From positions 1-15,703 of the forward strand of contig JAIFNF010000119.1 of the NCBI GenBank assembly GCA_020047885.1: a stretch of 15,703 nt of DNA, read 5' to 3'. The notes beneath the pieces were generated by a model that ran no database searches, was not told the DNA's origin, and was given only the letters and a program-made list of their open reading frames with translations. This document shows, piece by piece, positions 208 through 15,703 of this stretch (position 1 is the first letter of the stretch; the number at the start of each line of letters is the position of its first letter). The stretch comes from Gammaproteobacteria bacterium (GTDB lineage: Bacteria > Pseudomonadota > Gammaproteobacteria > Competibacterales > Competibacteraceae). A program made the translations under genes and the position numbers.

Positions 208-3200
208 TCAAAGCGTAGGAACACCCAGCACCGGCGGCGCGGGTTTTAGCACGACCGCACTGAGCGGCGGCAGATCGAGGACGATGGAAAACGCAAAGCC
301 GTGGCTGGAAAACTCCTCGGCAGTCACCTTCCCGCCCGGCACGGTCAACCCGAAACCGCCATACTCGCGGGCATCGCTGTTCAGCAACTCCCGATAGACG
401 ACCGGATACGGCATACCGATTCGGTAGTTCGGGCGCGACTGGTCGGAAAAATTCAGCACAAATACCAGCGCATCGCGGGGATCACGGGCGCGGCGCTGGA
501 ATACCAGCACGTTGGTCTCGGCGCCATTGGCATCCAGCCATTCAAAACCGGCTCCGTGGAAATCGACCTGATGAACGGCGGGTTCACGGACGTACAGCTT
601 GTTCAGCGCCGCCAGAAAACGCCTTAATCCCTCATGCGGCGGCATCTTCGCCCGCACCCAGTCCAGTTCAGTATCGTGATTCCATTCGCCGGGCTGGCCA
701 AACTCCCCGCCCATGAACAACAGTTTCTTGCCGGGATGGCCGTACATGAAGGCATACAGCAACCGCAGGTTGGCAAACTGCTCGCGCTCAGTGCCCGGCA
801 TCTTGCCCAGCAGCGACTTCTTTAGATGCACCACCTCATCGTGCGACAGCGACAGGATGAAGTTCTCATTGAAGGCGTAGACCAGCCCAAAGGTCAGCTT
901 GTCGTGATGGTGGCGGCGATGCACCGGCCCTTTTTGCATGTAGAACAGCACATCGTGCATCCAGCCCATGTTCCACTTGAAGCCAAAACCCAGTCCGCCC
1001 ATGTCCGCCGGCCGGGAGACGTTCGGCCAGGCGGTCGATTCTTCGGCGATCATCAGCACACCGGGGAAGCGGGCATGAACCACCGCATTGGTGTGCTTGA
1101 TAAACTCAATCGCTTCCAGATTCTCGTTGCCGCCGTATTTATTGGGAATCCAGTCCTTTTTCGAATAGTCCAGATACAGCATTGACGCTACCGCATCCAC
1201 CCGCAGCCCGTCAAAGTGGAAGGTATCCAGCCAGTACAAGGCATTGGCGATCAGGAAGTTTTCCACCTCATGCCGGCCATAGTTGAAAATCAGTGTTCCC
1301 CAGTCGGGATGCTCGCCCTGGCGCGGATCGGCGTGTTCGTAAACGCAGGTGCCATCGAACCAGGCCATGGCGTGGGCGTCTTTGGGGAAATGCGCCGGCA
1401 CCCAGTCGAGAATGACGCCAATGCCGTTCTGGTGGCAGCGGTCGATCAGCTCCATCAGATCGTCCGGGCGACCAAATCGGGCAGTCGGCGCATAGAAATT
1501 GGAAATCTGATAACCCCAGGACGGGCCATAGGGATGTTCAGCGAGCGGCAGGAATTCAATGTGCGTGAAGCCCATTTCCAGCACATAGGGAATCAGTTGA
1601 TCGGCCAGTTCCCGATAGGACAGGAATTCCCCGTCCGGTTTGCGCCGCCACGATGCCGCATGAATCTCATAAATCGCCACGGGTTGCCGCCAGGCGGGTT
1701 GCCGCATCCGCTCCTGCATCCACGCCCCATCGCGCCAGACATGCTTGCCGGCCCGGTCATAAACGATGCTGGCAGTGCCGGGCGGCACTTCGGTGTGGAA
1801 GGCGAACGGGTCGGTTTTCAGGAACACGTTACCGTTACGAGCCAGGATCTCGAACTTGTACAGTGCGCCCTCGGCCAGACCGGGGATGAACAGTTCCCAA
1901 ATCCCGGAACCGGGCCGCAGCCGCATGGGATGACGACGACCATCCCAGTGGTTGAACGCGCTGACCACGCTGACCCGCTGGGCATTGGGTGCCCAGACCG
2001 CGAAATTGATGCCGCGCCGTCCGGCCACCTCGGCGGGATGTGCGCCGAAATTCTCGTAAATCTGGTAATGATTGCCCTCGGCGAACAGGTAGCAATCCTG
2101 GTCGCTCAAGATCGAGAAGGTCGTCGCGTAGGGATCAGCGAACGTATGCGGCTCGCCGTGTTCCAGGGTGCTGATCTGGTAACGCAGATCCTCCGGTTCC
2201 GCCGCGACTACCGTTTCAAACAGGCCGCCCGCATAGATCGGTTGCAGGGCATACAGCAGATGCGGCTGGCGCTCGTTCAACAGCCAGGGCGATTCGGCAT
2301 CAGGCAACAGGGCGCGCACCACGCTCAACCCGGCCTCGCCCAGCGGATGCGGCCCGAGGATGTCATGGGGGTTGGTGTGCCGACCCTCGATCAGCGCTTG
2401 GTGTTCCGTCGGCTTCAACGTCAGTGGCGGTGCATCGTCACGCAGCAGGAAGCGCAGGCCATCGGCACTCTTCGGCGAACCCAATCGGGCGATCAGGGTG
2501 CGGACATCGGTGCGCAGGGCGTCGATGTGGTAAACCTGCCGCCAGAACCGGGCGTTGGCTCTCAGGAAATTACAAACTTCTGGCCGTTCCAGATTAAACG
2601 CCTGCATCCCCGGCTGGCCGGGAACGTCGACATCATAAAGCCGCGCGCCATCGAACCAGGTCAATTCCTGACCCTCACGCGGGATCCGGGCGGGAATCCA
2701 GTCGAGAATCACACCGATGCCGTGTTGATGACAGGCATCGATGAACGCCATCAGTTCTTCAGGTCGGCCATAGCGGGGATTCGGGGTGAAATAGCCGGCC
2801 ACCGTTTCGCCGGGCGTCCAGAAACTCAGTTCGATATGGACGCCGGTCCGCCCCAGCAGTGGCGGCAGCACCTGTTCTTTTAACTGGGCGTAACCGGCGA
2901 CCTGACCGGGATGGTCGCCGAATGTCACCCGGTGGATAGTCACGGGCAGTTCCCAACCGGGCGTTGTCAGCGCCTGCGCTATCCACCGGCTATCCGCCCA
3001 GGCGTAACGGTGTTCGAGGTCGCAAACCAGAGCAGCGGTGCTGGGATAAACTTCAGTTTGGAACGCCAGTGGATCGGTTTTAAGGAACACTGCGCCTTCG
3101 CCGTTGCGAATTTCATATTTATAGAGATCGCCCAGACCGGTGCCGGGGATGAACAATTCCCAAACCCCGGAATCATGCCGCTGCATGAAATGCCGACGGC

Positions 3201-3675
3201 CATCCCATTGATTGAAGGTGCCTACCACACTAACCCGACTGGCGTGCGGTGCCCATAAGGTGAAATTAACCCCGGCCACGCCTTTTTTCGACTGGGGATG
3301 CGCACCCAGTTTGGCGCACAGCGAGTCCAGTTTTCCCTGATGTAACGCCGCGCTATCCGCCGGACTGAACGCCGAGTCGTGAAGAGCATAAGGGTCGTGG
3401 AACGTTGTGATTGCTCCGTCGGCGTCAACCGTCTTGAACTGATAAGCCAGATGCGTCACGCCGGGCCAGCGGCTCGCGAACAGTCCATCGGGGTGCAAGC
3501 GCTGCATTTCGCGTGGGCTGGTTCCATCCGCCGGTACCACATAAGCCCGTTCAGCACCGGGTAGAAAAGCGCGAATCAGCAACGTCCGTTCCCGGCTGTC
3601 GTAGTGAGGCCCCAAAACCGCGTAAGGCGCGTCATGACGTAATTCAATAATTTTTTGAAGGTTTTCTTCCAGCAT
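208..3675 (-). CDS. glgB: 1,4-alpha-glucan branching enzyme with duplicated N-terminal half
   Basis: Cytoplasmic GH13 enzyme that makes alpha-1,6 branches in glycogen. The 1155 residues compare with about 730 in ordinary GlgB. Residues about 424-1150 form a complete enzyme: N-terminal domain (424-520), CBM48 (550-640, WAPNAQRVSVV, FNHWDGRRHPM), GH13 barrel (660-1025) and C-terminal beta domain. Catalytic motifs are present: DWVPAHF at 757, GLRVDAVASM with nucleophile D827, AEES at 877-880 with the acid/base Glu, and SHDE with D946. Residues 1-400 are a diverged second copy (LWAPHASRVSVV, FNQWDGRRHFM) that stops after the region II equivalent (DALRTD, D390). That copy has DWIPARI instead of DWVPAHF and lacks regions III and IV, so it should be inactive and may bind glucan. 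The start follows AAGGTCAGGGCG. No other glg gene is adjacent. Family assignment is certain; the role of the first copy is inferred. Confidence 0.95.
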   Translation of the reverse strand: MLEENLQKIIELRHDAPYAVLGPHYDSRERTLLIRAFLPGAERAYVVPADGTSPREMQRLHPDGLFASRWPGVTHLAYQFKTVDADGAITTFHDPYALHDSAFSPADSAALHQGKLDSLCAKLGAHPQSKKGVAGVNFTLWAPHASRVSVVGTFNQWDGRRHFMQRHDSGVWELFIPGTGLGDLYKYEIRNGEGAVFLKTDPLAFQTEVYPSTAALVCDLEHRYAWADSRWIAQALTTPGWELPVTIHRVTFGDHPGQVAGYAQLKEQVLPPLLGRTGVHIELSFWTPGETVAGYFTPNPRYGRPEELMAFIDACHQHGIGVILDWIPARIPREGQELTWFDGARLYDVDVPGQPGMQAFNLERPEVCNFLRANARFWRQVYHIDALRTDVRTLIARLGSPKSADGLRFLLRDDAPPLTLKPTEHQALIEGRHTNPHDILGPHPLGEAGLSVVRALLPDAESPWLLNERQPHLLYALQPIYAGGLFETVVAAEPEDLRYQISTLEHGEPHTFADPYATTFSILSDQDCYLFAEGNHYQIYENFGAHPAEVAGRRGINFAVWAPNAQRVSVVSAFNHWDGRRHPMRLRPGSGIWELFIPGLAEGALYKFEILARNGNVFLKTDPFAFHTEVPPGTASIVYDRAGKHVWRDGAWMQERMRQPAWRQPVAIYEIHAASWRRKPDGEFLSYRELADQLIPYVLEMGFTHIEFLPLAEHPYGPSWGYQISNFYAPTARFGRPDDLMELIDRCHQNGIGVILDWVPAHFPKDAHAMAWFDGTCVYEHADPRQGEHPDWGTLIFNYGRHEVENFLIANALYWLDTFHFDGLRVDAVASMLYLDYSKKDWIPNKYGGNENLEAIEFIKHTNAVVHARFPGVLMIAEESTAWPNVSRPADMGGLGFGFKWNMGWMHDVLFYMQKGPVHRRHHHDKLTFGLVYAFNENFILSLSHDEVVHLKKSLLGKMPGTEREQFANLRLLYAFMYGHPGKKLLFMGGEFGQPGEWNHDTELDWVRAKMPPHEGLRRFLAALNKLYVREPAVHQVDFHGAGFEWLDANGAETNVLVFQRRARDPRDALVFVLNFSDQSRPNYRIGMPYPVVYRELLNSDAREYGGFGLTVPGGKVTAEEFSSHGFAFSIVLDLPPLSAVVLKPAPPVLGVPTL

Positions 3676-4550: not shown

Positions 4551-4717
4551 GTAGGCGCGGGCCATGCCCGCGAATGACGGGTGTGCTGGTCGCTTCCTTC
4601 GCGGGCATGGCCCGCTCCTACGCCGGGTGTTCACGGGCATGGCCAGCTCCTACGTCGGGTGTTCGCGGGCATGGCCAGCTCCTACGCCGGGTGTTCGCGG
4701 GCATGGCCAGCTCCTAC
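4551..4717. repeat. Left REP array of the RAYT unit
   Basis: One inverted REP (4551-4573, GTAGG then GCGGGCCATGCCCGC) is followed by four direct REPs starting at 4600, 4632, 4664 and 4696. Each has a 22-base core (GCGGGCATGGCC..., ending CTCCTAC) and a 10-base spacer close to GCCGGGTGTT, giving an exact 32-bp period. In the opposite sense each begins with the GTAG tetranucleotide typical of REPs. Three of the four direct units read GGCCAGC instead of GGCCCGC, which puts one mismatch in the stem. The last unit overlaps the transposase stop codon. Confidence 0.9.
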
Positions 4718-5184
4718 GGCATGGGCAACCATATCGTATTCCAAAACGGGTAATCGCCGACATGCCGAACCAATCCGGCTCGCACCGGGTTGGCGACAAT
4801 ATATCGGGCGGTTCCCAATAAATCCTCCTCGCGCCGCAAGGCATGGTCGTGATACGCCTTGGCCCACAACGGACCTTCGCGCCCCAGTGCCCGGTTGACC
4901 CGCCGGGCACTGGCGGATTTCAAGCGATTCACCATATTTTGCAAGCTGATTTCTTCACCCAATTGCAGCAGGCCATGAAAATGGTCGGGCATCAACACCC
5001 AAGCCAATAATTTCGCGTCGGCTAACACCGCTTTGTCCTCAAAGGCTTGCGCAGCGGCCTGCGCAGCCTTGAAATCGGCAAAAAATAGTTGGCGTTCCAA
5101 TGTCGTCGTGGTGAAAAGATAGATTTGCCCTTCAATCGAAACCCGCCCTTTGCGTAAGGCGGTATGGCCGGGTTTGGTGTTCAT
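4714..5184 (-). CDS. REP-associated tyrosine transposase (RAYT)
   Basis: A 156-residue single-domain Y1 transposase related to the IS200/IS605 TnpA family. The HUH motif is seen as MPDHFHGLL (H68, H70), and the probable catalytic tyrosine is Y128 in ARYIVANPVRAGLV, the usual context in this family. RAYTs are thought to nick and move REP hairpins carrying a GTAG or GGAG guide. The start at 5184 follows AAGGGACACC. An inverted REP lies 10 bp upstream of the start. The TAG stop comes from the GTAGGAG head of the final left-array REP, so gene and repeat are physically joined. Length and motifs look complete, so it is probably functional. RAYTs are usually single-copy, domesticated genes. Confidence 0.93.
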   Translation of the reverse strand: MNTKPGHTALRKGRVSIEGQIYLFTTTTLERQLFFADFKAAQAAAQAFEDKAVLADAKLLAWVLMPDHFHGLLQLGEEISLQNMVNRLKSASARRVNRALGREGPLWAKAYHDHALRREEDLLGTARYIVANPVRAGLVRHVGDYPFWNTIWLPMP

Positions 5185-5194
5185 GGTGTCCCTT

Positions 5195-5351
5195 GTAGGA
5201 GCGCCCCATGGGCGCGATTTGAGGTTGGTTTATCGCGGGCATGGCCCGCTCCTACGCGGGGTGTTCGCGGGCATGGCCCGCTCCTACGCGGGGTGTTCGC
5301 GGGCATGGCCCGCTCCTACGCGGGGTGTTCGCGGGCATGGCCCGCTCCTAC
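5195..5351. repeat. Right REP array of the RAYT unit
   Basis: One inverted, divergent REP (5195-5217, GTAGGAGCGCCCCATGGGCG) is followed by four direct REPs starting at 5234, 5266, 5298 and 5330. All four share the core CGCGGGCATGGCCCGCTCC plus TAC, separated by GCGGGGTGTT, again with an exact 32-bp period. Unlike the left array, all stems are perfect (GCGGGC/GCCCGC with an ATG loop), suggesting recent amplification. Both arrays have one inverted copy followed by four direct copies. Confidence 0.9.
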
Positions 5352-5503
5352 CTGCATAGGGGTAATGGACGACTCTCTTACGCCAACCGGACAAAATTCC
5401 GATTTACGCTGAACCAAAACACAACCCGGAAGCCGGTGCAGCGCCTTGTTGTGCGGCCACCTGAGTGTTGAACCCACCCCATGCAAGACCAAAAGGGTTC
5501 GCG
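5352..5503. other. Intergenic stretch with no recognisable feature
   Basis: The interval between the right REP array and the hsdM stop shows no convincing ORF, and no hairpin followed by a T-run was found downstream of hsdM. Confidence 0.5.
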
Positions 5504-7111
5504 TCACGGCAAGGACGGCAGACCCAGTTCGATGAGAAACGCATTGTGTTTGTCCATTACGGTTGCGATGTGCTGAGCCAGCGATGCCAGTTCGGCATGG
5601 GTGGCCGGCAAATCAATCGCCATTTCCGCCTCGGCGGTGCTGATGTAGCGCGAGATGTTGAGGTTGTAGCCGTTGGCCGCTATCTCTTCCATCGCCACGC
5701 GGCGGGCGTAACGCGCATCTTCCTTGCGGTACTGGTAGGTGTCGAGAATCTGGTCGATGTGCTCGAGCCGCAGCCGGTTTTGCCGCTTGCCTTTCTCGAA
5801 GTGCTCGGCGGCGTTGATGAACAGCACGTCTTCGGGCTTCTTGCATTTCTTCAACACCAGAATGCACACCGGGATGCCCGTGGAGAAGAACAGGTTGGCG
5901 GGCAGGCCGATCACGGTGTCGATATGGCCGTCTTTTAGCAGTTTGGTGCGGATGCGCTCTTCTGCGCCGCCCCGGAATAGCACACCGTGGGGCAGGATGA
6001 TGGCCATCACCCCGTCGGGCTTCAGGTAGTGGAAGCCGTGCAGCAAAAAGGCAAAGTCGGCGGCGGACTTGGGTGCCAGGCCGTAATTCTTGAAGCGCAT
6101 GTCCTCGCCCAGCGCGTCAGTCGGTTCCCAGCGGTAGCTGAACGGCGGATTGGCCACGACCGCGTCAAACTTCGGCATCCTGGCCGGGTTCATTTCGCGC
6201 AAGGTATCCCATTCGTTGGTGAGGGTGTCGCCGTGGACAATCTCGAACTCGGAATCCTTGACGCCGTGCAGCAGCATGTTCATGCGGGCCAGGTTGTAGG
6301 TGGTGATGTTCTTTTCCTGCCCGAAAATTTTGCCGATGCCGTGCGATCCCATGCGGTGGCGCACATTCAGCAGCAACGAGCCGGAACCACAGGCGAAGTC
6401 GAACACGCTGTCGAGGTGTTTTCGTTGGCCGGTGGCGGGTTCCTGACTGTCCAGCGTGACGATGCCCGACAAAATGCTGGAAATCTGTTGCGGGGTGTAG
6501 AACTCGCCCGCCTTCTTGCCACTTCCCGCGGCAAACTGGCCGATCAGGTATTCATAGGCATCGCCCAGCGTGTCGCGGTCGGTCGAGAACTTTTCCAGCC
6601 CCTCGGCAATGGCTTTGATGATGGTGCAGAGTTTAGCGTTTTGCGCGGTGTAGCCCCTGCCCAGCTTTTCCGAATTCAGATTGATCTCGGAGAATAGCCC
6701 GCCGAAGGTGCTGGCGAAGGATTCGTTCTCGATGTAGTCGAAGCCTTTTTGCAGGGTGTGCAGCAATTCCCCGTCTTGGGTGCGGGCCAGTTCCGCGATG
6801 CTGCCCCAGAGGTAGGCGGGTTGGATCACATAATGCGTCTTGCGGCGCATCTGTTTTTCAAACTCGGCGGTGTCGCCTGGGTTCTGCGCGTACCACACCG
6901 CCAGCGGTGCACGGCGGTCGCCTGCGTCCAGCTTGGGGTAATCCGATCCCAGCTCCTTGTGGGCGGCGGTTTCGTAGTTGTCGGACAGGTAGCGCAGGAA
7001 CAGGAACGACAGCATGTAATCGCGGAAATCGTCCGCGTTCATCGCGCCGCGCAGTTGGTCGGCAATGCCCCAAAGCGTGTTGCCCAGTTGTTTTTGATCT
7101 TGGTCGGTCAT
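5504..7111 (-). CDS. hsdM: Type I restriction-modification methyltransferase subunit HsdM
   Basis: A 535-residue N6-adenine methyltransferase subunit that joins HsdS to form the M2S methylase. The N-terminal helical HsdM domain (about 5-150; TLWGIADQLRG, FLFLRYLSDNYE) is followed by the N6_Mtase fold. GEFYTP is at 202-207, the SAM-binding motif I DFACGSGSLL at 238-247, and catalytic motif IV NPPF at 321-324. Length is normal and no frame disruption was seen. The ATG overlaps the stop of the 65-aa gene upstream (ATGA at 7108-7111), indicating translational coupling. It is the last gene of the operon, after hsdR and hsdS; hsdM is more usually placed before hsdS. With hsdS broken it may have no target-recognition partner unless one is encoded elsewhere. 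Confidence 0.96.
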   Translation of the reverse strand: MTDQDQKQLGNTLWGIADQLRGAMNADDFRDYMLSFLFLRYLSDNYETAAHKELGSDYPKLDAGDRRAPLAVWYAQNPGDTAEFEKQMRRKTHYVIQPAYLWGSIAELARTQDGELLHTLQKGFDYIENESFASTFGGLFSEINLNSEKLGRGYTAQNAKLCTIIKAIAEGLEKFSTDRDTLGDAYEYLIGQFAAGSGKKAGEFYTPQQISSILSGIVTLDSQEPATGQRKHLDSVFDFACGSGSLLLNVRHRMGSHGIGKIFGQEKNITTYNLARMNMLLHGVKDSEFEIVHGDTLTNEWDTLREMNPARMPKFDAVVANPPFSYRWEPTDALGEDMRFKNYGLAPKSAADFAFLLHGFHYLKPDGVMAIILPHGVLFRGGAEERIRTKLLKDGHIDTVIGLPANLFFSTGIPVCILVLKKCKKPEDVLFINAAEHFEKGKRQNRLRLEHIDQILDTYQYRKEDARYARRVAMEEIAANGYNLNISRYISTAEAEMAIDLPATHAELASLAQHIATVMDKHNAFLIELGLPSLP

Positions 7112-7305
7112 GCGCTTTTTCTTCCCGGAGGATTACGGCGCAGTTCTTCCGCTGCAATCCGCACCAATCGCCCATCTTCCACAATCACGATATTCGTATT
7201 TGTCTGCATCGCGGTTTCACGGGCTAAGGCGGCGGCTCGCTGCATAGCGGCCAGTGAAGCACGCAAGTCTGGGTCTTGGGCTTGGGCAATGTCTGGTGTA
7301 CTCAT
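7108..7305 (-). CDS. Small protein (65 aa) between the zeta-like kinase and hsdM
   Basis: The start at 7305 is chosen because GGAGAG precedes it by seven bases and its ATG overlaps the kinase stop as TGATG. A longer in-frame reading would run back into the kinase C-terminus in the wrong frame. The protein begins MSTPDIAQAQDPDLRAS, continues as a likely helix (RAAALARETAMQTNT), then NIVIVEDGRLVRI, which reads as a beta hairpin, and ends with a basic tail. There is no signal peptide, membrane segment or Cys. From memory, similar small proteins accompany genes for COG4185-type ATPases, so it may be the cognate partner or antitoxin. That is inference. It overlaps the hsdM start by four bases and is intact. 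Confidence 0.75.
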   Translation of the reverse strand: MSTPDIAQAQDPDLRASLAAMQRAAALARETAMQTNTNIVIVEDGRLVRIAAEELRRNPPGRKSA

Positions 7306-7812
7306 CAGTTTTCTCTCCATTCCAGCAAGACAGGCTCGGTACCAGAGTTGTCGTAACTGGCCCAGGCATCCACTTCGGCTTTGTAGTGCTGATTGAAATT
7401 GTGCCATCCGGTTGCAAAGCGGCGACGGATCACGGGTTCGGGAATGTCATGCCCACCTTGGCGAACCCGCTCTTGTACGCGGGCGATGGCGGTCTCGACA
7501 TTGGGCAGGCAAAGGTAAAATATGATAACCTAGCGTCCGCCATTGTCGGATGTGCCTGAGATAGCCGCGACCGGACAAGGTGGTTTCAAAGGCGAAGCTG
7601 GCCTTTCGTTGCATCGAAGCGGCGATTTCTTCCAGCATCAAGCGCCCTGCTTTCACCGCAGCGGCCTCCGGCGCAAAGGGTGACAACCCCGCCGCAATCA
7701 GGTCAGCATTGATAAAGTGCGGGCATTGCGCCTCTTCCGGCAAAAAGGAACGGGCGAACGTGGTCTTTCCCGCGCCATTGGGTCCGGCAATGATGATGAT
7801 TTTTTTATTCAT
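7305..7812 (-). pseudogene. Zeta-toxin-like P-loop kinase (COG4185 type), frameshifted
   Basis: The first part (7812 down to about 7520) encodes MNKKIIIIAGPNGAGKTTFA with Walker A at residues 10-17, FINADLIAAGLSPF and FETTLSGRG, as in zeta-like kinases and predicted ABC-type ATPases. After TLGYHI the frame is lost. The family sequence resumes in another frame (LPNVETAIARVQERVRQGG, DIPEPVIRRRFATGWHNF) and runs to a TGA at 7305-7307. The break is at or next to the T-run at 7517-7520 and equals one base gained or two lost. A restored protein would be about 168 residues. Its ATG overlaps the hsdS stop (ATGA, 7809-7812), and its true stop overlaps the next start (TGATG). A sequencing error, real decay, or programmed frameshift cannot be told apart here. 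Toxin activity is not proven. Confidence 0.85.
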
Positions 7813-7830
7813 CCCTCCGCCTCATCCAGC

Positions 7831-7883
7831 GCGGGGAAAAGCTGTTGCATCAGCCCCTTTTTATGGGTCTTGAGCGTGTTGAG
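7831..7883. repeat. hsdS conserved-region repeat, distal copy
   Basis: Nearly the same 53 bases occur at 8449-8501 in the same orientation. Both encode the THKKGLMQQLFPA helix end of HsdS, once after TRD2 and once after TRD1. Such repeats are the usual substrate for recombination between hsdS domains. Confidence 0.8.
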
Positions 7884-8391
7884 TTTTTGGATTTGGGCGA
7901 CGATGAGATCGTCGAGGGAGGCGAGGCATGAGGCGATTTTTTGTTGTTCTTTGAGGTTTGGAATTAGAACATCAAGCTGCTCTATTTGAGTCGGATAAAG
8001 ATGAACAACCGTATCGCCTTGTGCAACCTTAGCGATCGACAACCGAAGCGGCCCATTCAATTGGTAGCTGAGAAAGACGCCATTTTGGCTTGAGCGAATT
8101 ACGTTAAGATCGCCACCAAGAGCGATATCGTCGCTCATCACACATGAAGCCTTCGCAATATCTATCTTCGTCTCACCAGATGCAGGAATGATTACATCAT
8201 TCCTCTTGCTCAAAAACAGCTCACTGGCATCGACGTTTGTACTGGAAGCTATTTTGTGAATCGTCTCCCCGTAGACTGTATAGAGCTCGCCGTAGCGAAT
8301 ACATGGCTGAACCCCATTAGCAACGATATCAACCTTTGAAATTCCTTTGCCCTTATATAGGGTGGCAACTGCACCGAGCTTTTCTTTGCTC

Positions 8392-8434
8392 CACTCCCCC
8401 GCCTCCCGAAACTCAGGAAAGCGCAGTTTGGGTA
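8392..8434. repeat. hsdS conserved-region repeat preceding TRD2
   Basis: Nearly identical to 9148-9190. Both encode PKLRFPEFR-AGEW, the entry to a target-recognition domain, in the same orientation. Together with the 7831/8449 pair it brackets each TRD with matching sequence. Confidence 0.8.
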
Positions 8435-8727
8435 GGGTTTCGCCTTGGGCGGGGAAAAGCTGCTGCATTAGCCCTTTTTTATGGGTCTTGAGCGTGTCGA
8501 GCTTTTGCGCCTCCAGGGTGATCAGTTCGTCGAGGGAAGAAAGGCCATCGGCGATTTTTTGTTGTTCGTTGATGTTAGGAATCGCAATAACAAAACTCTT
8601 CAATGAGCTTCCCGATAACTCTTTGAACGTGTTTCCCGAACCAAGATCGTTTAATGCGCCCTTCGATTTCAGTAAATAGTAGTAGATGAAGTGAGCATCA
8701 GACCGCGACAGCGGAACCAGTCCATGG

Positions 8728-8855
8728 GTAACCGTTCACCCCCCCCACCCCAACCCTCCCCCGCGAGGGGGGAGGGAGTCTTGCGAATCAGCGAGTTAGC
8801 GCTCCCCCTCTCCATTTATGGGGAGGGGGTTAGGGGGCGGGGTCTGAACGCTTAC
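8728..8855. mobile_element. 128-bp MITE inserted in hsdS
   Basis: The ends are inverted repeats: GTAACCGTTCACCCC at the left, and GTAAGCGTTCAGACCCC when the right end is read on the other strand. The similarity extends as C-rich arms for about 50 bp each, with inner hairpins (CCCTCCCCC-GCGA-GGGGGG). It is flanked by perfect 8-bp direct repeats GTCCATGG at 8720-8727 and 8856-8863. No ORF fits inside, so it depends on a transposase elsewhere. Deleting the element and one flanking copy joins HsdS codons NQGC and HGLVPL in frame, which shows the insertion site directly. Confidence 0.93.
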
Positions 8856-9237
8856 GTCCATGGCAGCCCTGATTGATTGCCATTGGTAATTTGTTTATTG
8901 CCAGATGACCAATCGGGGCGCGTGTAGAGATGATTACAGAGTTTTCAGGCAATAACTCAGAAGAGCATTTTTTTTAAGCCCTCTTCAGTGATTGATCTCA
9001 CCGTTTCTGCAACATAAGGACTCTCACCTTTGCCCATTTCGGCGGGCGTGATCCATTGAACACTGCCGCCCCAGTAGCTGGCGATTGATGTATCCGGTGT
9101 TCCCCCCCTGCGTAATGCGACAGGTTTCAGATATGGTTTTTTCCTCCCACTCCCCCGCCGCCCGAAACTCAGGAAAGCGCAGCTTGGGCACCAGCGCACG
9201 TTTTTTTGCTCACGCATCGTTGTCGTCCATAGGTGGC

Positions 9238-9340
9238 AAAACCACCCCGTCAGGCTTCGCCTGCCACCCCTCCGAAGGAGGGGAATAACCCCGCAAATTC
9301 CCCTCCTTCGGAGGGGTGCCCCGTAGGGGCGGGGTGGTTT
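9238..9340. repeat. Palindromic repeat between hsdR and hsdS
   Basis: The ends are inverted, AAACCACCCC (9238-9247) and GGGGTGGTTT (9331-9340). Inside are two palindromes, CCCCTCCGAAGGAGGGG (9267-9283) and CCCCTCCTTCGGAGGGG (9300-9316). This matches the structure of a MITE or REP-type intergenic element. No clear target duplication was seen. Its right end provides two bases of the hsdR stop codon. Confidence 0.8.
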
Positions 9341-11726
9341 ATTGCTCATACGCTCCCAGCCCAGAAATCTCCCGCCCCTGAGCGAGTTTGTGCAGTAGCG
9401 GGATCAAGTCTGCCATCAGCGCCAGTTCCGCCCTGGTTCGCGCCTTCCAGCCCACTTCCAACGGAGCCATGAGGTCGCTCAACTGTTCGCCGTCGAAGAT
9501 CATCCGGCGCAGGATGCCGTCCACAAAGCCTTGCAGGGCGGCAGCATCCAGCCGGTGCTGTTTGGCTACGTCGGCCAGTGCCTGGGTGGTTTTTGTGACC
9601 TTGTATTGGGCGTATTCCTCGCGCACACCCTGCACGGTATGCGGTTGGTGGGCGTCGAGACTGTCAATGTATTCGATGAGAGCCTCCCGGTCGTCAAGCA
9701 GCTTGGCATCCGATTGGATCAAGCCCAGCAATTCAGCACGGCTCATCGTCTGCTGGCCCGGCGCCTGGCTGGCATAGCGGGCAATCAGGGCCATGATGTA
9801 GTCGTAATCAATCACCGCGCTGGCAAACAGCACGAACTCGAAATCAATCTGCTGCACTTCTGGCGGGGTGCTGTCGTCGTGTCGGTCCTGCTTGTCCTTC
9901 AGGCGCTGGGCCGTATCGAGGTACACCCCCTTGAAGCCCTGCAACTGCTTCCTGGGCAGTACCTGCTCGATGCGGGCCTTGTGCTCGGGCGTCAGGTCGG
10001 TGTACTGGTCGATCTGGGTGTTCAGGCGCTGCACTTCCTTGAACAGGTTGATGAACTGGGCGCGGGCGGCGTCACCCTTGAGGTTGGGCACGGCTTCGGG
10101 CTGGTTCTCCAGCCCCTGCGATTGCATGAACGTATCCAACTGCTGCACGGCGGTTTGCAACCGGTCGATGACCACCGGAGCCTGGTCCACCAGCCAGATT
10201 TCCTTGGCGGGCTTGGTGGCCGCCCCGGAGAACAGGCTGATGGCGGTATCCACCGCGTCCTGCTGCTGGCGAAAGTCGAGGATGTTGCCGTAGGGCTTGG
10301 TGTCGTTGAGGACGCGGTTGGTGCGCGAAAGCGCCTGAATCAGCCCGTGATACTTGAGATTCTTGTCCACATACAGCGTATTCAGGTATTTGGAATCGAA
10401 GCCGGTCAGCAGCATATCCACCACAATCGTAATGTCGATCTTCTGCGCGTGGGGCAGGTCGGCATTGGGGTATTGCTGATCCTTGATGCGCTTTTGCACG
10501 TCCTGATAGTAAAGATCGAACTCGCTGATGCGGTGATTGCTGCCGTATTGGGCGTTGGGGAAGAATGCCTTGATGGCTTGGTGGTTCTCGCCAAATTGCG
10601 AGCGGTGGCATTCGTCGAAGATGAACCCCAGGCGCTGATGACGTAATGGCTCCAGGCGCTCCTGGTAGTTGCGCGGGTTGGCACCGTCGAGCGCCAGGCC
10701 GAGCTTCTGGATGGTGGTCACAATCACCTTGTCAGCATAGTCGTCCGAGAGCAGGCGGCGCACCAGGGTTTCGGTATTGGTGTTTTCTTCGACGCAGCCT
10801 TCCTGAAACTTATTGAATTCCTCCCGCGTCTGCCGGTCGAGGTCTTTGCGGTCCACCACGAACAGGCATTTATCAATGTCGGGGTTGTCTTTGAGCAGGG
10901 TGGAGGCTTTGAACGAGGTGAGCGTCTTGCGGCTGCCGGTGGTGTGCCAGATATAGCCATTGCCGCAGTGCTGGTGAATGCACTCGACGATGGCCTTGAC
11001 GGCATAGATCTGATAGGGCCGCATCATCAGCAGTTTTTGTTCGCTGGCCACCAGCACCATGTAGCGGCTGATCATCTGCCCCAGCGTACACTTGGTCAGG
11101 AAGGCGTCGGCGAAGTGGTCCAGATGGGTGATCTTTTGGTTGTCCACGCTGGCGAACTGGTAAAGCGGCAAAAAGCGCTCGTCGGCGTTGAAGCTAAAGT
11201 GGCGGCGGTTGCTGACGATGAACAGTTGCAGGAAACAGAGTAGAGTTTTGGTGTAACCGTTACCGGGGTCGTTCTTGTAATCGACGATCTGCTGCATGGC
11301 CCGGCGCGGGCTGATGGCCAGCGTTTTCAGCTCGATCTGCACCACGGGCACGCTGTTGATCAGCAGGATCACATCAAAGCGGTGGTGGCTGTAGTCGGTG
11401 TTGATGCGCAGTTGGTTGACGACCTCGAAGTTGTTTTTGCACCAGTCCTTGATATTGACCAGCGTGTAGTAGAGCGGTGTGCCGTCGTCGCGCTCGAAGT
11501 GGTTGCGCTCGCGCAGGTGTTTGGCGGCGGCGAACACGTCGGGGGTGACGATGCTCTCCAGCAGGCGGGCGAATTCGCTGTCGGTGAGATGAACGCGGTT
11601 AAGCACCTCGAAATGCTGGCGGAAATTGTGTTCCAGCGCGGCGCGATCGCAGAGGTCTGGGCGGTATTGGTACTTGAGATCGCCCAATTTCTCGATCAGC
11701 GCCTGTTCGATGTGTTGTTCAGTCAT
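9339..11726 (-). CDS. hsdR: Type I restriction endonuclease subunit HsdR, internally deleted and probably inactive
   Basis: HsdR translocates DNA and cuts it when complexed with HsdM/HsdS. The N-terminal nuclease domain keeps its PD-ExK residues: D118 (RFDVILL), then E132 and K134 (IELK). The helicase part has HTTGSRKTLTS at 261-271, where families of this kind have GSGKT: residue 266 is Arg (CGC at 10929-10931). Walker B is DECH at 371-374. FFPNAQ (388-393) is followed directly by YGSNHRISEFDLYYQ, so motif III (TGTP) and the beginning of the second RecA domain are missing; motif V (LLTGFDSK) and VI (QALSRTNR) remain. The total of 795 residues compares with over 1000 usually expected. The reading frame stays open, so a protein can be made. 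First gene of the operon, with a promoter at 11754-11783. Confidence 0.92.
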   Translation of the reverse strand: MTEQHIEQALIEKLGDLKYQYRPDLCDRAALEHNFRQHFEVLNRVHLTDSEFARLLESIVTPDVFAAAKHLRERNHFERDDGTPLYYTLVNIKDWCKNNFEVVNQLRINTDYSHHRFDVILLINSVPVVQIELKTLAISPRRAMQQIVDYKNDPGNGYTKTLLCFLQLFIVSNRRHFSFNADERFLPLYQFASVDNQKITHLDHFADAFLTKCTLGQMISRYMVLVASEQKLLMMRPYQIYAVKAIVECIHQHCGNGYIWHTTGSRKTLTSFKASTLLKDNPDIDKCLFVVDRKDLDRQTREEFNKFQEGCVEENTNTETLVRRLLSDDYADKVIVTTIQKLGLALDGANPRNYQERLEPLRHQRLGFIFDECHRSQFGENHQAIKAFFPNAQYGSNHRISEFDLYYQDVQKRIKDQQYPNADLPHAQKIDITIVVDMLLTGFDSKYLNTLYVDKNLKYHGLIQALSRTNRVLNDTKPYGNILDFRQQQDAVDTAISLFSGAATKPAKEIWLVDQAPVVIDRLQTAVQQLDTFMQSQGLENQPEAVPNLKGDAARAQFINLFKEVQRLNTQIDQYTDLTPEHKARIEQVLPRKQLQGFKGVYLDTAQRLKDKQDRHDDSTPPEVQQIDFEFVLFASAVIDYDYIMALIARYASQAPGQQTMSRAELLGLIQSDAKLLDDREALIEYIDSLDAHQPHTVQGVREEYAQYKVTKTTQALADVAKQHRLDAAALQGFVDGILRRMIFDGEQLSDLMAPLEVGWKARTRAELALMADLIPLLHKLAQGREISGLGAYEQ

Positions 11727-14199: not shown

Positions 14200-15703
14200 T
14201 TATTGACTGAAAGTGGCCTTCACCTTGCGGGCGGCATCCACGGTGACCCGACAGACGTCCAGCCCGGTGCAGTCGCCCTCCCAGCCGCCAAACGTCGAGC
14301 CGGCTGCTGCTTCGGCGCTCAATGTCACCAGCCTCCCCGCCGCGTAGACTTCGCCGCAATCCGTCCCGCAATCCACCCCGACCGGGTCGCTAACGATTCG
14401 GCCTGAGCCACTTCCCGTCTTGTAGATGATCAGGGGAAAGCTCTGGTTGCTGCGGTTAAACGTAGCGGTGACCGACTGGCTGCGATCCACGGTGACTTGA
14501 CAATCACCTTGCCCACTACAAGCCCCCAGCCAACCGCCAAAGGTGGAGCCTGCCTCCGCTTGGGCGGTCAGCGTGACCACGGTTGCGGAGGTGTAGTCTT
14601 CCCGGCAGTCGCTGCCACAATCGATACCCGCCGGGATGCTGGTGATGCGACCCGACCCGGATCCCATGGTGGCGGTCGTCAGCCGCATGAGCGCGTTGAC
14701 CGGTTCGAATGTTGCGACGATGCTCTTAGCCGCGTTCATCGCTACCGTGCAGACCGGATTGACGCCAACGCAAGCGCCACTCCAGACGGTGAACAGGGCA
14801 TCGGGATCGGGCGTTGCGGTCAGCGTTACGCTCGCCCCCGGGGGGTAGCTTTCACTGCAATCGGTGCCGCAGTTGATGCCCTCCGGGGCGCTGACCACGG
14901 TTCCCCCAACGCCAACGGTCACCGACAGGGAGTAGGGTTCGGTACTAAAGGTGGCGGTGACTGTACAATCGGCGCTGATCGGGCCGGTGGTGTAGAGTTG
15001 GCCGGTTTGTACACCGTCGCACCCGGTAACGGTAGACCCGTAGCCAGGTGACGGGGTGATGGTGAACCGGGCGACCCCGCCCTCGGGAATCTGTTGTGAA
15101 CCCGGTCTGATCGCGCCGTTCGATCCGGCCGTCGCGGTCACGGTGTGAGCGAGGGTGTCGGCTTCCACCGCGCCAATATCGATGGTGTCATTGACGATGC
15201 GTGGAAAGCCGGAGCCGCGCTGGTCGGTGGTGACGTCGGCGGGGATCAGCGCATTGCTGCCAACGTTCATTGCGGGGCTGCCCGCAACCGGCAAATGGGT
15301 CAAGGTCGAGCCGCCGTTATCCGTGAGTCCGCCAATGATGTCGCCGATCGGAATGCCGATATCGGGTATCAGGTCAGTGCCAATCGGGGTGGCACCGGAT
15401 AACCCGCTCACGCCGTTCACGCCGAACAGGTTGTTACCCTGCGAGGTGAAGGTGCCGCTTGCTGCAACCCGGATTTCCTGGCCGTCCACCGACGCGCTGT
15501 TGCCCGAGATCAAACTGTTGCCAAGGGTGAGCAGATTCTCCGTGTAAATGCCACCGCCGTAATTGGCGCTGTTGCCCGTCACCGTGGCGTTCGTCAGCGT
15601 GACCGGCCCACTACCGCCATCGATCCCGCCCCCGGTATGTGCCGCTATATTCCCGGACACCGTGCTGTTGCTAATGATCACGGCACCAGCAGACACCCCG
15701 TAC
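14200..15703 (-). CDS. Secreted beta-helix protein with C-terminal Cys-containing repeats (5' end outside window)
   Basis: The frame is open to the window edge, so the 500 or so residues seen are only the C-terminal part; the GTG at 15696 is probably not the start. Residues are counted from that GTG. Residues 1-100 show right-handed beta-helix repeats (ISNSTVSGNIA, LTNATVTGNSANYGGGIY, GNSLISGNSASV). Next is a choice-of-anchor Q type segment (LTDNGGSTLTHLPVAGSPA, QRGSGFPRIVNDTIDIGAVE). Four tandem repeats of about 75 residues follow (about 183-250, 255-330, 338-413, 421-496). The last three share DCG-DC, GASVTLTA-like strands, a WxGAC or similar motif and a closing VxATF. Such proteins are extracellular or surface-bound; ligand unknown. 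No sorting motif is visible at the C-terminus (KATFSQ). The frame is continuous. Confidence 0.85.
   Translation of the reverse strand, partial: YGVSAGAVIISNSTVSGNIAAHTGGGIDGGSGPVTLTNATVTGNSANYGGGIYTENLLTLGNSLISGNSASVDGQEIRVAASGTFTSQGNNLFGVNGVSGLSGATPIGTDLIPDIGIPIGDIIGGLTDNGGSTLTHLPVAGSPAMNVGSNALIPADVTTDQRGSGFPRIVNDTIDIGAVEADTLAHTVTATAGSNGAIRPGSQQIPEGGVARFTITPSPGYGSTVTGCDGVQTGQLYTTGPISADCTVTATFSTEPYSLSVTVGVGGTVVSAPEGINCGTDCSESYPPGASVTLTATPDPDALFTVWSGACVGVNPVCTVAMNAAKSIVATFEPVNALMRLTTATMGSGSGRITSIPAGIDCGSDCREDYTSATVVTLTAQAEAGSTFGGWLGACSGQGDCQVTVDRSQSVTATFNRSNQSFPLIIYKTGSGSGRIVSDPVGVDCGTDCGEVYAAGRLVTLSAEAAAGSTFGGWEGDCTGLDVCRVTVDAARKVKATFSQ

What the first reader, a model, noticed from the sequence alone, without database searches (positions are those of the whole stretch)
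7108..7812. Zeta-like kinase and 65-aa partner translationally coupled between hsdS and hsdM
Junctions are ATGA (hsdS/kinase), TGATG (kinase/small protein) and ATGA (small protein/hsdM), so all four genes form one coupled chain in the order R-S-kinase-small-M. A P-loop kinase related to toxins, with a likely partner protein, is not a standard part of type I R-M operons. It could be a back-up abortive-infection module, an addiction module stabilising the locus, or a regulator of methylase supply.
Basis: partly seen in the sequence, partly recalled or inferred. Interest (0 to 1): 0.7.

Follow-up and report, generated by a model that had tools for sequence, protein, structure and literature searches.

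The report
Kinase pair embedded in restriction operons
Between the genes of a DNA-restriction defence system sits a two-gene unit, a toxin-like kinase and a small partner, that turns up again and again inside such systems in other bacteria; in this copy the kinase and two of the restriction genes are broken, but the recurring arrangement suggests a built-in fail-safe or addiction device.

Summary
Observation confirmed. On the minus strand the order is hsdR, hsdS, kinase, 65-aa protein, hsdM, with the stated ATGA/TGATG/ATGA overlaps. This copy is decayed: the kinase is split between two frames, hsdS is interrupted and hsdR lacks about 165 residues; the small gene and hsdM are open.

The pair is not a chance insertion. 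In 369 sampled genomes, 16 of the 34 best-scoring relatives of this kinase lie within 500 bp of a restriction-modification gene on the same strand (7 type I, 9 type III), against 1 of 29 more distant kinases found by the same profile. Type III copies mostly sit between mod and res. In a wider set 14 of 80 do; the other 66 have no such neighbour.

Of 100 unbroken kinases with downstream sequence, 100 are followed by, or fused to, the partner, one weakly. Eight of 10 broken kinases keep it. The kinase models as a zeta/PezT-type core.

Best reading: a recurrent toxin-antitoxin-like module carried inside type I and type III operons, dead as a toxin here. Toxicity, substrate and trigger are untested. 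New variant of a known kind.

The parts
9339..11726 (-). hsdR, 795 aa; about 165 residues of the motor region missing relative to a 998-aa homologue
   Evidence: Pfam HSDR_N, SWI2_SNF2, T1R_D3-like, EcoR124_C; L101 HsdR aligns as 1-414 and 581-998
7809..9349 (-). hsdS, interrupted in its first target-recognition half; C-terminal part open (7809-8603)
   Evidence: Methylase_S; homologous HsdS residues ~5-50 at 9209-9075 and ~111-423 at 8735-7812
7308..7812 (-). zeta-like (COG4185-type, label recalled) kinase, broken: two pieces in different frames, 7447-7812 and 7308-7529
   Evidence: frames; both pieces match intact 172-aa kinases
7108..7305 (-). 65-aa partner protein, intact
   Evidence: 86 proteins at E<=1e-3, the window's own included; no Pfam or NCBIfam family at E<=1 and no PADLOC family at E<=0.1; relatives follow the kinase
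5504..7111 (-). hsdM, 535 aa, intact
   Evidence: N6_Mtase and HsdM_N, TIGR00497 above cut-off, 90% identical to G338

Best explanation
The pair is a decayed copy of a recurrent two-gene module, a zeta/PezT-core kinase followed by a small helix-hairpin partner, that settles in R-M operons, mostly directly behind the specificity or modification gene (hsdS or mod) and in front of the next subunit gene (hsdM, hsdR or res), often joined by overlapping stop and start codons. Inferred working: the kinase is a toxin, the partner its antitoxin made from the next frame, and linkage to the R-M operon makes loss or disturbance of the operon costly (addiction), or lets the kinase stop growth when the R-M system is overrun. 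Shown: the pairing, the recurrence, the predicted fold, the overlaps, and that kinase loss with partner kept is seen while the reverse was not. Inferred: toxicity, neutralisation, substrate, trigger. In this window the kinase is dead, and so very likely is restriction; the small gene is left as a former antitoxin, perhaps kept open because it carries translation into hsdM.
Against: In the broad sample 66 of 80 copies have no R-M gene within 500 bp. The partner matches no known family and the order is toxin first. The loss asymmetry is weak statistically (p about 0.03-0.06 for 11 or 9 losses under a simple length model) and some broken kinases in draft genomes may be sequencing errors. The same slot holds many unrelated genes, so it may simply tolerate insertions. 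I saw no toxicity data for this pair.
Confidence: 0.55

Rival explanations
1. R-M guardian: the kinase is held off while the R-M enzyme is intact and is released when a phage inhibits or destroys it, in the manner of PrrC masked by EcoPrrI; the partner or the R-M subunits do the holding.
For: Position inside type I and type III operons with coupled frames. A review describes PrrC, encoded inside a type IC locus, and PARIS as RM guardians, and says some such systems carry accessory genes thought to act as toxins (PMC12707154, passages).
Against: The many copies without an R-M neighbour need no R-M partner, so the small protein must suffice there. No link to anti-restriction proteins was tested.
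Confidence: 0.25
2. Island hitch-hiking: R-M operons lie in defence islands where small defence and toxin-antitoxin genes are shuffled, and the gap behind hsdS/mod is a tolerant landing place; the pair has no working tie to R-M.
For: The same slot in other hsdM loci holds DUF1016/YhcG, Bro-N, AAA_13, Fic, RhuM or PIN genes. Synechocystis pSYSG has hsdM, PIN genes, hsdS, a nucleotidyltransferase, the pair, DUF4433, macro and hsdR together (hsdM and hsdR by sequence match, not annotated in that table).
Against: More distant kinases in the same genomes are not enriched (1 of 29). Overlapping frames on both sides recur and are more exact than island-level clustering needs.
Confidence: 0.3
3. The small protein is the part that matters to R-M: a translational link or an HsdM/Res-binding regulator; the kinase is dispensable cargo.
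For: Small gene kept when the kinase is broken or replaced; its stop overlaps the hsdM start in the window and L104, and it directly precedes hsdM or res in L118 and L193.
Against: Pairs without R-M neighbours keep the small protein; in L102 and L109 there are about 300 bp or more between small gene and hsdM; natural fusions tie it to the kinase.
Confidence: 0.15

Closest known systems
epsilon/zeta and PezAT toxin-antitoxin systems
   Different: shorter kinase (about 172 aa), partner downstream, partner unlike epsilon/PezA as far as searched (no Pfam hit, no solved relative better than E 0.29); substrate unknown
PrrC / EcoPrrI (toxin embedded in a type I R-M locus)
   Same: a likely growth-arrest gene coded inside a type I operon (PMC12707154, passages)
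   Different: PrrC is an anticodon nuclease; here a zeta-type kinase with a separate small partner, found beside type III genes as well
AvrRxo1-ORF1:ORF2 (kinase effector with small inhibitor)
   Different: different context; no claim of common function is made
Genes 'related to TA modules' sll8001-ssl8005 in the pSYSG defence island of Synechocystis 6803
   Same: by position the same kind of pair beside type I R-M genes; I take sll8004/ssl8003 to be the pair from the gene order, not from a call
   Different: that paper (passages read) says they did not meet its criteria; in those passages I saw no test of them and no note that the arrangement recurs

Membership tests
epsilon/zeta-PezT toxin family | Zeta_toxin profile above Pfam's cut-off | tested here: met
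   intact embedded relative L083 (= L102 kinase) 41.3 vs 22.3 bits; the window's broken N piece alone stays below, 19.5 bits
epsilon/zeta-PezT toxin family | zeta kinase fold | tested here: met
epsilon/zeta-PezT toxin family | UDP-GlcNAc phosphorylation | not testable with these tools
   needs an enzyme assay
epsilon/zeta-PezT toxin family | epsilon- or PezA-like antitoxin upstream of the toxin | tested here: not met
   partner is downstream and matches no Pfam or NCBIfam family
type II toxin-antitoxin systems (general) | two adjacent, probably co-translated genes | tested here: met
   100 of 100 unbroken relatives; 65 of the 96 separate pairs overlap
type II toxin-antitoxin systems (general) | toxicity relieved by the partner | not testable with these tools
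   bench test; the loss asymmetry is indirect support only
PrrC-type R-M-embedded anticodon nuclease | PrrC / anticodon nuclease family protein | tested here: not met
   kinase profile and fold instead; no PrrC-named hit
type I R-M system | intact R, S and M subunits | tested here: not met
   M intact; S interrupted; R lacks about 165 residues: a decayed member

The most novel reading that the evidence does not exclude
A widespread guard class: zeta-type kinases with a dedicated small inhibitor are built into type I and type III R-M operons, behind the specificity/modification gene, so that phage attack on the R-M enzyme or loss of the operon frees the kinase and stops the cell. The partner may also sense the R-M complex, which would explain why it outlives the kinase.
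Probability: 0.25. Interest if true: 0.8.

Novelty: new variant of a known kind. Interest (0 to 1): 0.6.

Why it matters
Toxins inside R-M operons are known from a few cases such as PrrC. If a zeta-type kinase plus a dedicated small partner is a common passenger of both type I and type III operons, it offers a simple, testable second layer of defence or addiction, a new candidate antitoxin family, and one reason why R-M loci persist. Unbroken copies exist, at least one of them in a named isolate (Acidithiobacillus sulfurivorans), so the question can be tested directly.

Tried and rejected
Chance insertion: rejected on recurrence. A missing half of the kinase fold: the kinase alone already aligns to zeta over 165 residues, so the partner is not needed to complete the core; whether it covers the active site could not be seen, as no coordinates are given. 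Modelling the fusion with separate small proteins in the alignment: MAFFT placed them on the kinase part, so fusions were used instead. Phage carriage: no match of P0001 in the phage collection at E 1e-15; no match of the small protein in plasmids at 1e-4, although kinase relatives occur in 44 plasmid records at 1e-20. Family libraries do not know the small protein. Paper searches for zeta toxin or COG4185 with R-M terms (open-licence PMC only, listings seen) showed nothing that describes the arrangement as recurrent; the passages seen of PMC3874152, PMC7251935, PMC2701414 and PMC6211672 do not either. That comparison is itself imperfect: control flanks were up to about 5 kb against 9 kb, several are cut by contig ends, the seed set and cut-offs of the R-M search differed a little, and 2 of the 29 (L237, L238) carry the partner. 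The kinase tree is poorly resolved: 43 of 104 inner branches open.

Full report
What is there. The minus strand of the window carries hsdR (11726-9339), hsdS (9349-7809), a kinase (7812-7308), a 65-aa protein (7305-7108) and hsdM (7111-5504). Pfam gives HsdM_N and N6_Mtase for hsdM, Methylase_S for the open part of hsdS, and HSDR_N, SWI2_SNF2, T1R_D3-like and EcoR124_C for hsdR; the N-terminal kinase piece hits AAA_33 and Zeta_toxin just below their cut-offs, and the 65-aa protein hits nothing in Pfam, NCBIfam or PADLOC.

This copy is decayed. The kinase lies in two frames; each piece matches a different part of intact 172-aa homologues. Window hsdR aligns to a 998-aa homologue as 1-414 and 581-998, so about 165 residues of the motor are gone; hsdS is interrupted in its first half. 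P0122, whose small-protein part is 98% identical to the window's, starts with the first 21 residues of the same kinase joined to a few residues and the small protein, so there the kinase has been lost in a different way. hsdM and the small gene of the window are open.

Homologous type I loci. Among 369 genomes drawn from the class of Acidithiobacillus sulfurivorans, homologues of the window's HsdM (E<=1e-100) occur at 18 places in 17 genomes. I fetched and mapped all 18. Three carry kinase and small gene between hsdS and hsdM: L102 and L109 with open kinases, L118 (the locus also found as L053) with a kinase whose match lacks about residues 33-64. A fourth, L104, keeps the small gene overlapping hsdM but has a PIN-domain gene upstream and no kinase match. 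In others the same slot holds DUF1016/YhcG (L101), Bro-N and AAA_13 (L103), Fic and AAA_13 (L105), RhuM (L106), or RhuM and Fic (L110); further slot genes (in L105-L107 and L113) were not all searched. Several of the 18 are cut by contig ends (L108, L112, L114 at least), and three (L115-L117) are more distant, 46-47% identical, with hsdS behind hsdM.

The pair at large. In the 369 genomes the kinase profile gave 66 places in 57 genomes at E<=1e-15 (places counted by me). I took the 34 best-scoring places (L149-L179, L102, L109, L118) and, as controls, 29 of the 32 weaker ones (L210-L238), leaving out three fragments. An R-M gene lies within 500 bp on the same strand in 16 of 34 (type I: L150, L163, L165, L167, L102, L109, L118; type III: L149, L152, L153, L154, L157, L158, L160, L162, L176), in 14 of the 80 (type I: L004, L019, L024, L028, L038, L053, L055, L077; mod or res: L001, L012, L014, L016, L017; MmeI-like: L023), and in 1 of 29 controls (L212, a ResIII gene). 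Counting only loci with at least 900 bp on both sides it is 15 of 28 and 10 of 62. Fisher p is about 1e-4 for 16/34 against 1/29. L053 and L118 are the same locus. Weak labels: L149 is a short mod-like frame that Pfam does not recognise, L028 a short hsdM fragment, L176 a broken mod; L004 and L024 were labelled hsdM by the script but are HsdS by Pfam; L012 and L014 rest on the script alone. Pfam confirmed N6_N4_Mtase upstream and ResIII downstream in L001, L016, L153, L154, L157, L158 and L160, mod upstream in L152, res downstream in L162, and a methylase downstream in L017. Starting instead from a type III Mod, 42 matched places gave 30 loci: 7 carry the kinase (L180-L182, L198, L199, L203, L209), and these are the same places as seven of the 16 above; L193 keeps only the small gene, behind what I read as a MazE/MazF-like pair (that reading is mine, from the sequence, not from a family search).

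Junctions. I gave 26 loci (L019, L028, L055, L176 and the duplicate L118 left out; the plasmid locus L081 added). In the 22 with a measured upstream junction, 11 have the 4-base overlap and 19 lie within 14 bases; start codons were chosen by a simple rule. An ATGA- or GTGA-type overlap from the small gene into the next R-M gene can be read in L012, L016, L017, L153, L154, L160 and L162, and into another short gene in L014. L102, L109, L163 and L081 have gaps of about 280 bp or more on one side, and in L053 the hsdS-kinase gap is about 450 bp.

The partner. Of 113 distinct kinase places, 3 run off a contig end, 10 are broken and 100 are unbroken with downstream sequence. All 100 have the partner: 95 as a separate gene, 5 in one frame (L037, L055, L060, L079; L056 only weakly, fused to other sequence) (one search moved L042 to the broken ones). 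The search looked only at short frames starting near the kinase end and let the profile grow over four rounds; the same search at 324 other gene ends found none. Among the 29 controls the partner was seen in 2. Of the 10 broken kinases (in-frame stops, frameshift, insertion, deletion or truncation) 8 keep the partner (L053, L034, L042, L072, L161, L162, L172, L177; L172 read by eye, L072 a weak hit), 2 do not (L176, L179). Adding the window, P0122, L104 and L193, kinase loss with partner kept is seen twelve times, the reverse not once. Toxin-antitoxin logic predicts this, but a plain length model gives only p 0.03-0.06 for 11 or 9 losses, and some stops may be errors in draft genomes.

History. 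On a tree of 107 kinases (seven fragmentary ones left out), type I-embedded copies (14 rows) need 13 changes of label and type III copies (13 rows) 9; well-supported branches alone force 3 and 4, which could be one gain and several losses. Type III copies are somewhat clustered (1 of 500 shuffles as low), type I copies are not. Together with the different places in the operon (behind hsdS before hsdM, behind hsdS before hsdR, between mod and res), this points to repeated entry, but does not prove it.

Known work. Synechocystis pSYSG carries the pair between hsdS and a frame matching hsdR, with other toxin-like genes. A paper on its toxin-antitoxin systems lists genes there as related to TA modules but below its criteria (PMC4963859, passages). 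A 2025 review calls PrrC and PARIS RM guardians and mentions accessory toxin candidates coupled to R-M systems (PMC12707154, passages). I found no description of the recurrent kinase-partner insertion in the searches listed under Tried and rejected; the library lacks most subscription papers.

Verdict. The pair belongs to a recurrent, probably toxin-antitoxin-like module that lies inside or beside type I and type III operons in about half of the close relatives sampled in one class, though in a minority of the broad sample. In this window the toxin part is dead and restriction very likely lost. Function remains inferred.

Noticed in passing
window 4551-5383: Array of 32-bp-spaced repeats with inverted copies on both sides of a small IS200-like (Y1_Tnp) transposase gene (4714-5184, minus), like REP elements with their own transposase.
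   Followed up: partly
window 208-3675 (minus): 1155-aa glycogen branching enzyme with the GlgB_N and CBM48 domains matched twice and one catalytic-domain match.
   Followed up: no
L193 (G283), between mod and res: Kinase absent; two short genes that look to me like a MazE/MazF pair stand before the kept small gene.
   Followed up: partly
L104 (G309), upstream of hsdM: Kinase absent; a PIN-domain gene precedes the kept small gene, whose stop overlaps the hsdM start.
   Followed up: partly
L101, L103, L105, L106, L107, L110, L113: In this R-S-M type I family the hsdS-hsdM gap is a variable slot for DUF1016/YhcG, Bro-N, AAA_13, Fic and RhuM genes. One L107 slot gene matched no Pfam family; its other two and those of L113 were not searched.
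   Followed up: partly
L081, Synechocystis plasmid pSYSG: One cluster with an hsdM match, DUF433 and PIN-like genes, hsdS, nucleotidyltransferase, the pair, DUF4433, macro domain and an hsdR match.
   Followed up: partly
window 14200-15696 (minus): 498-aa frame with three divergent InlB B-repeat matches near the window edge.
   Followed up: no
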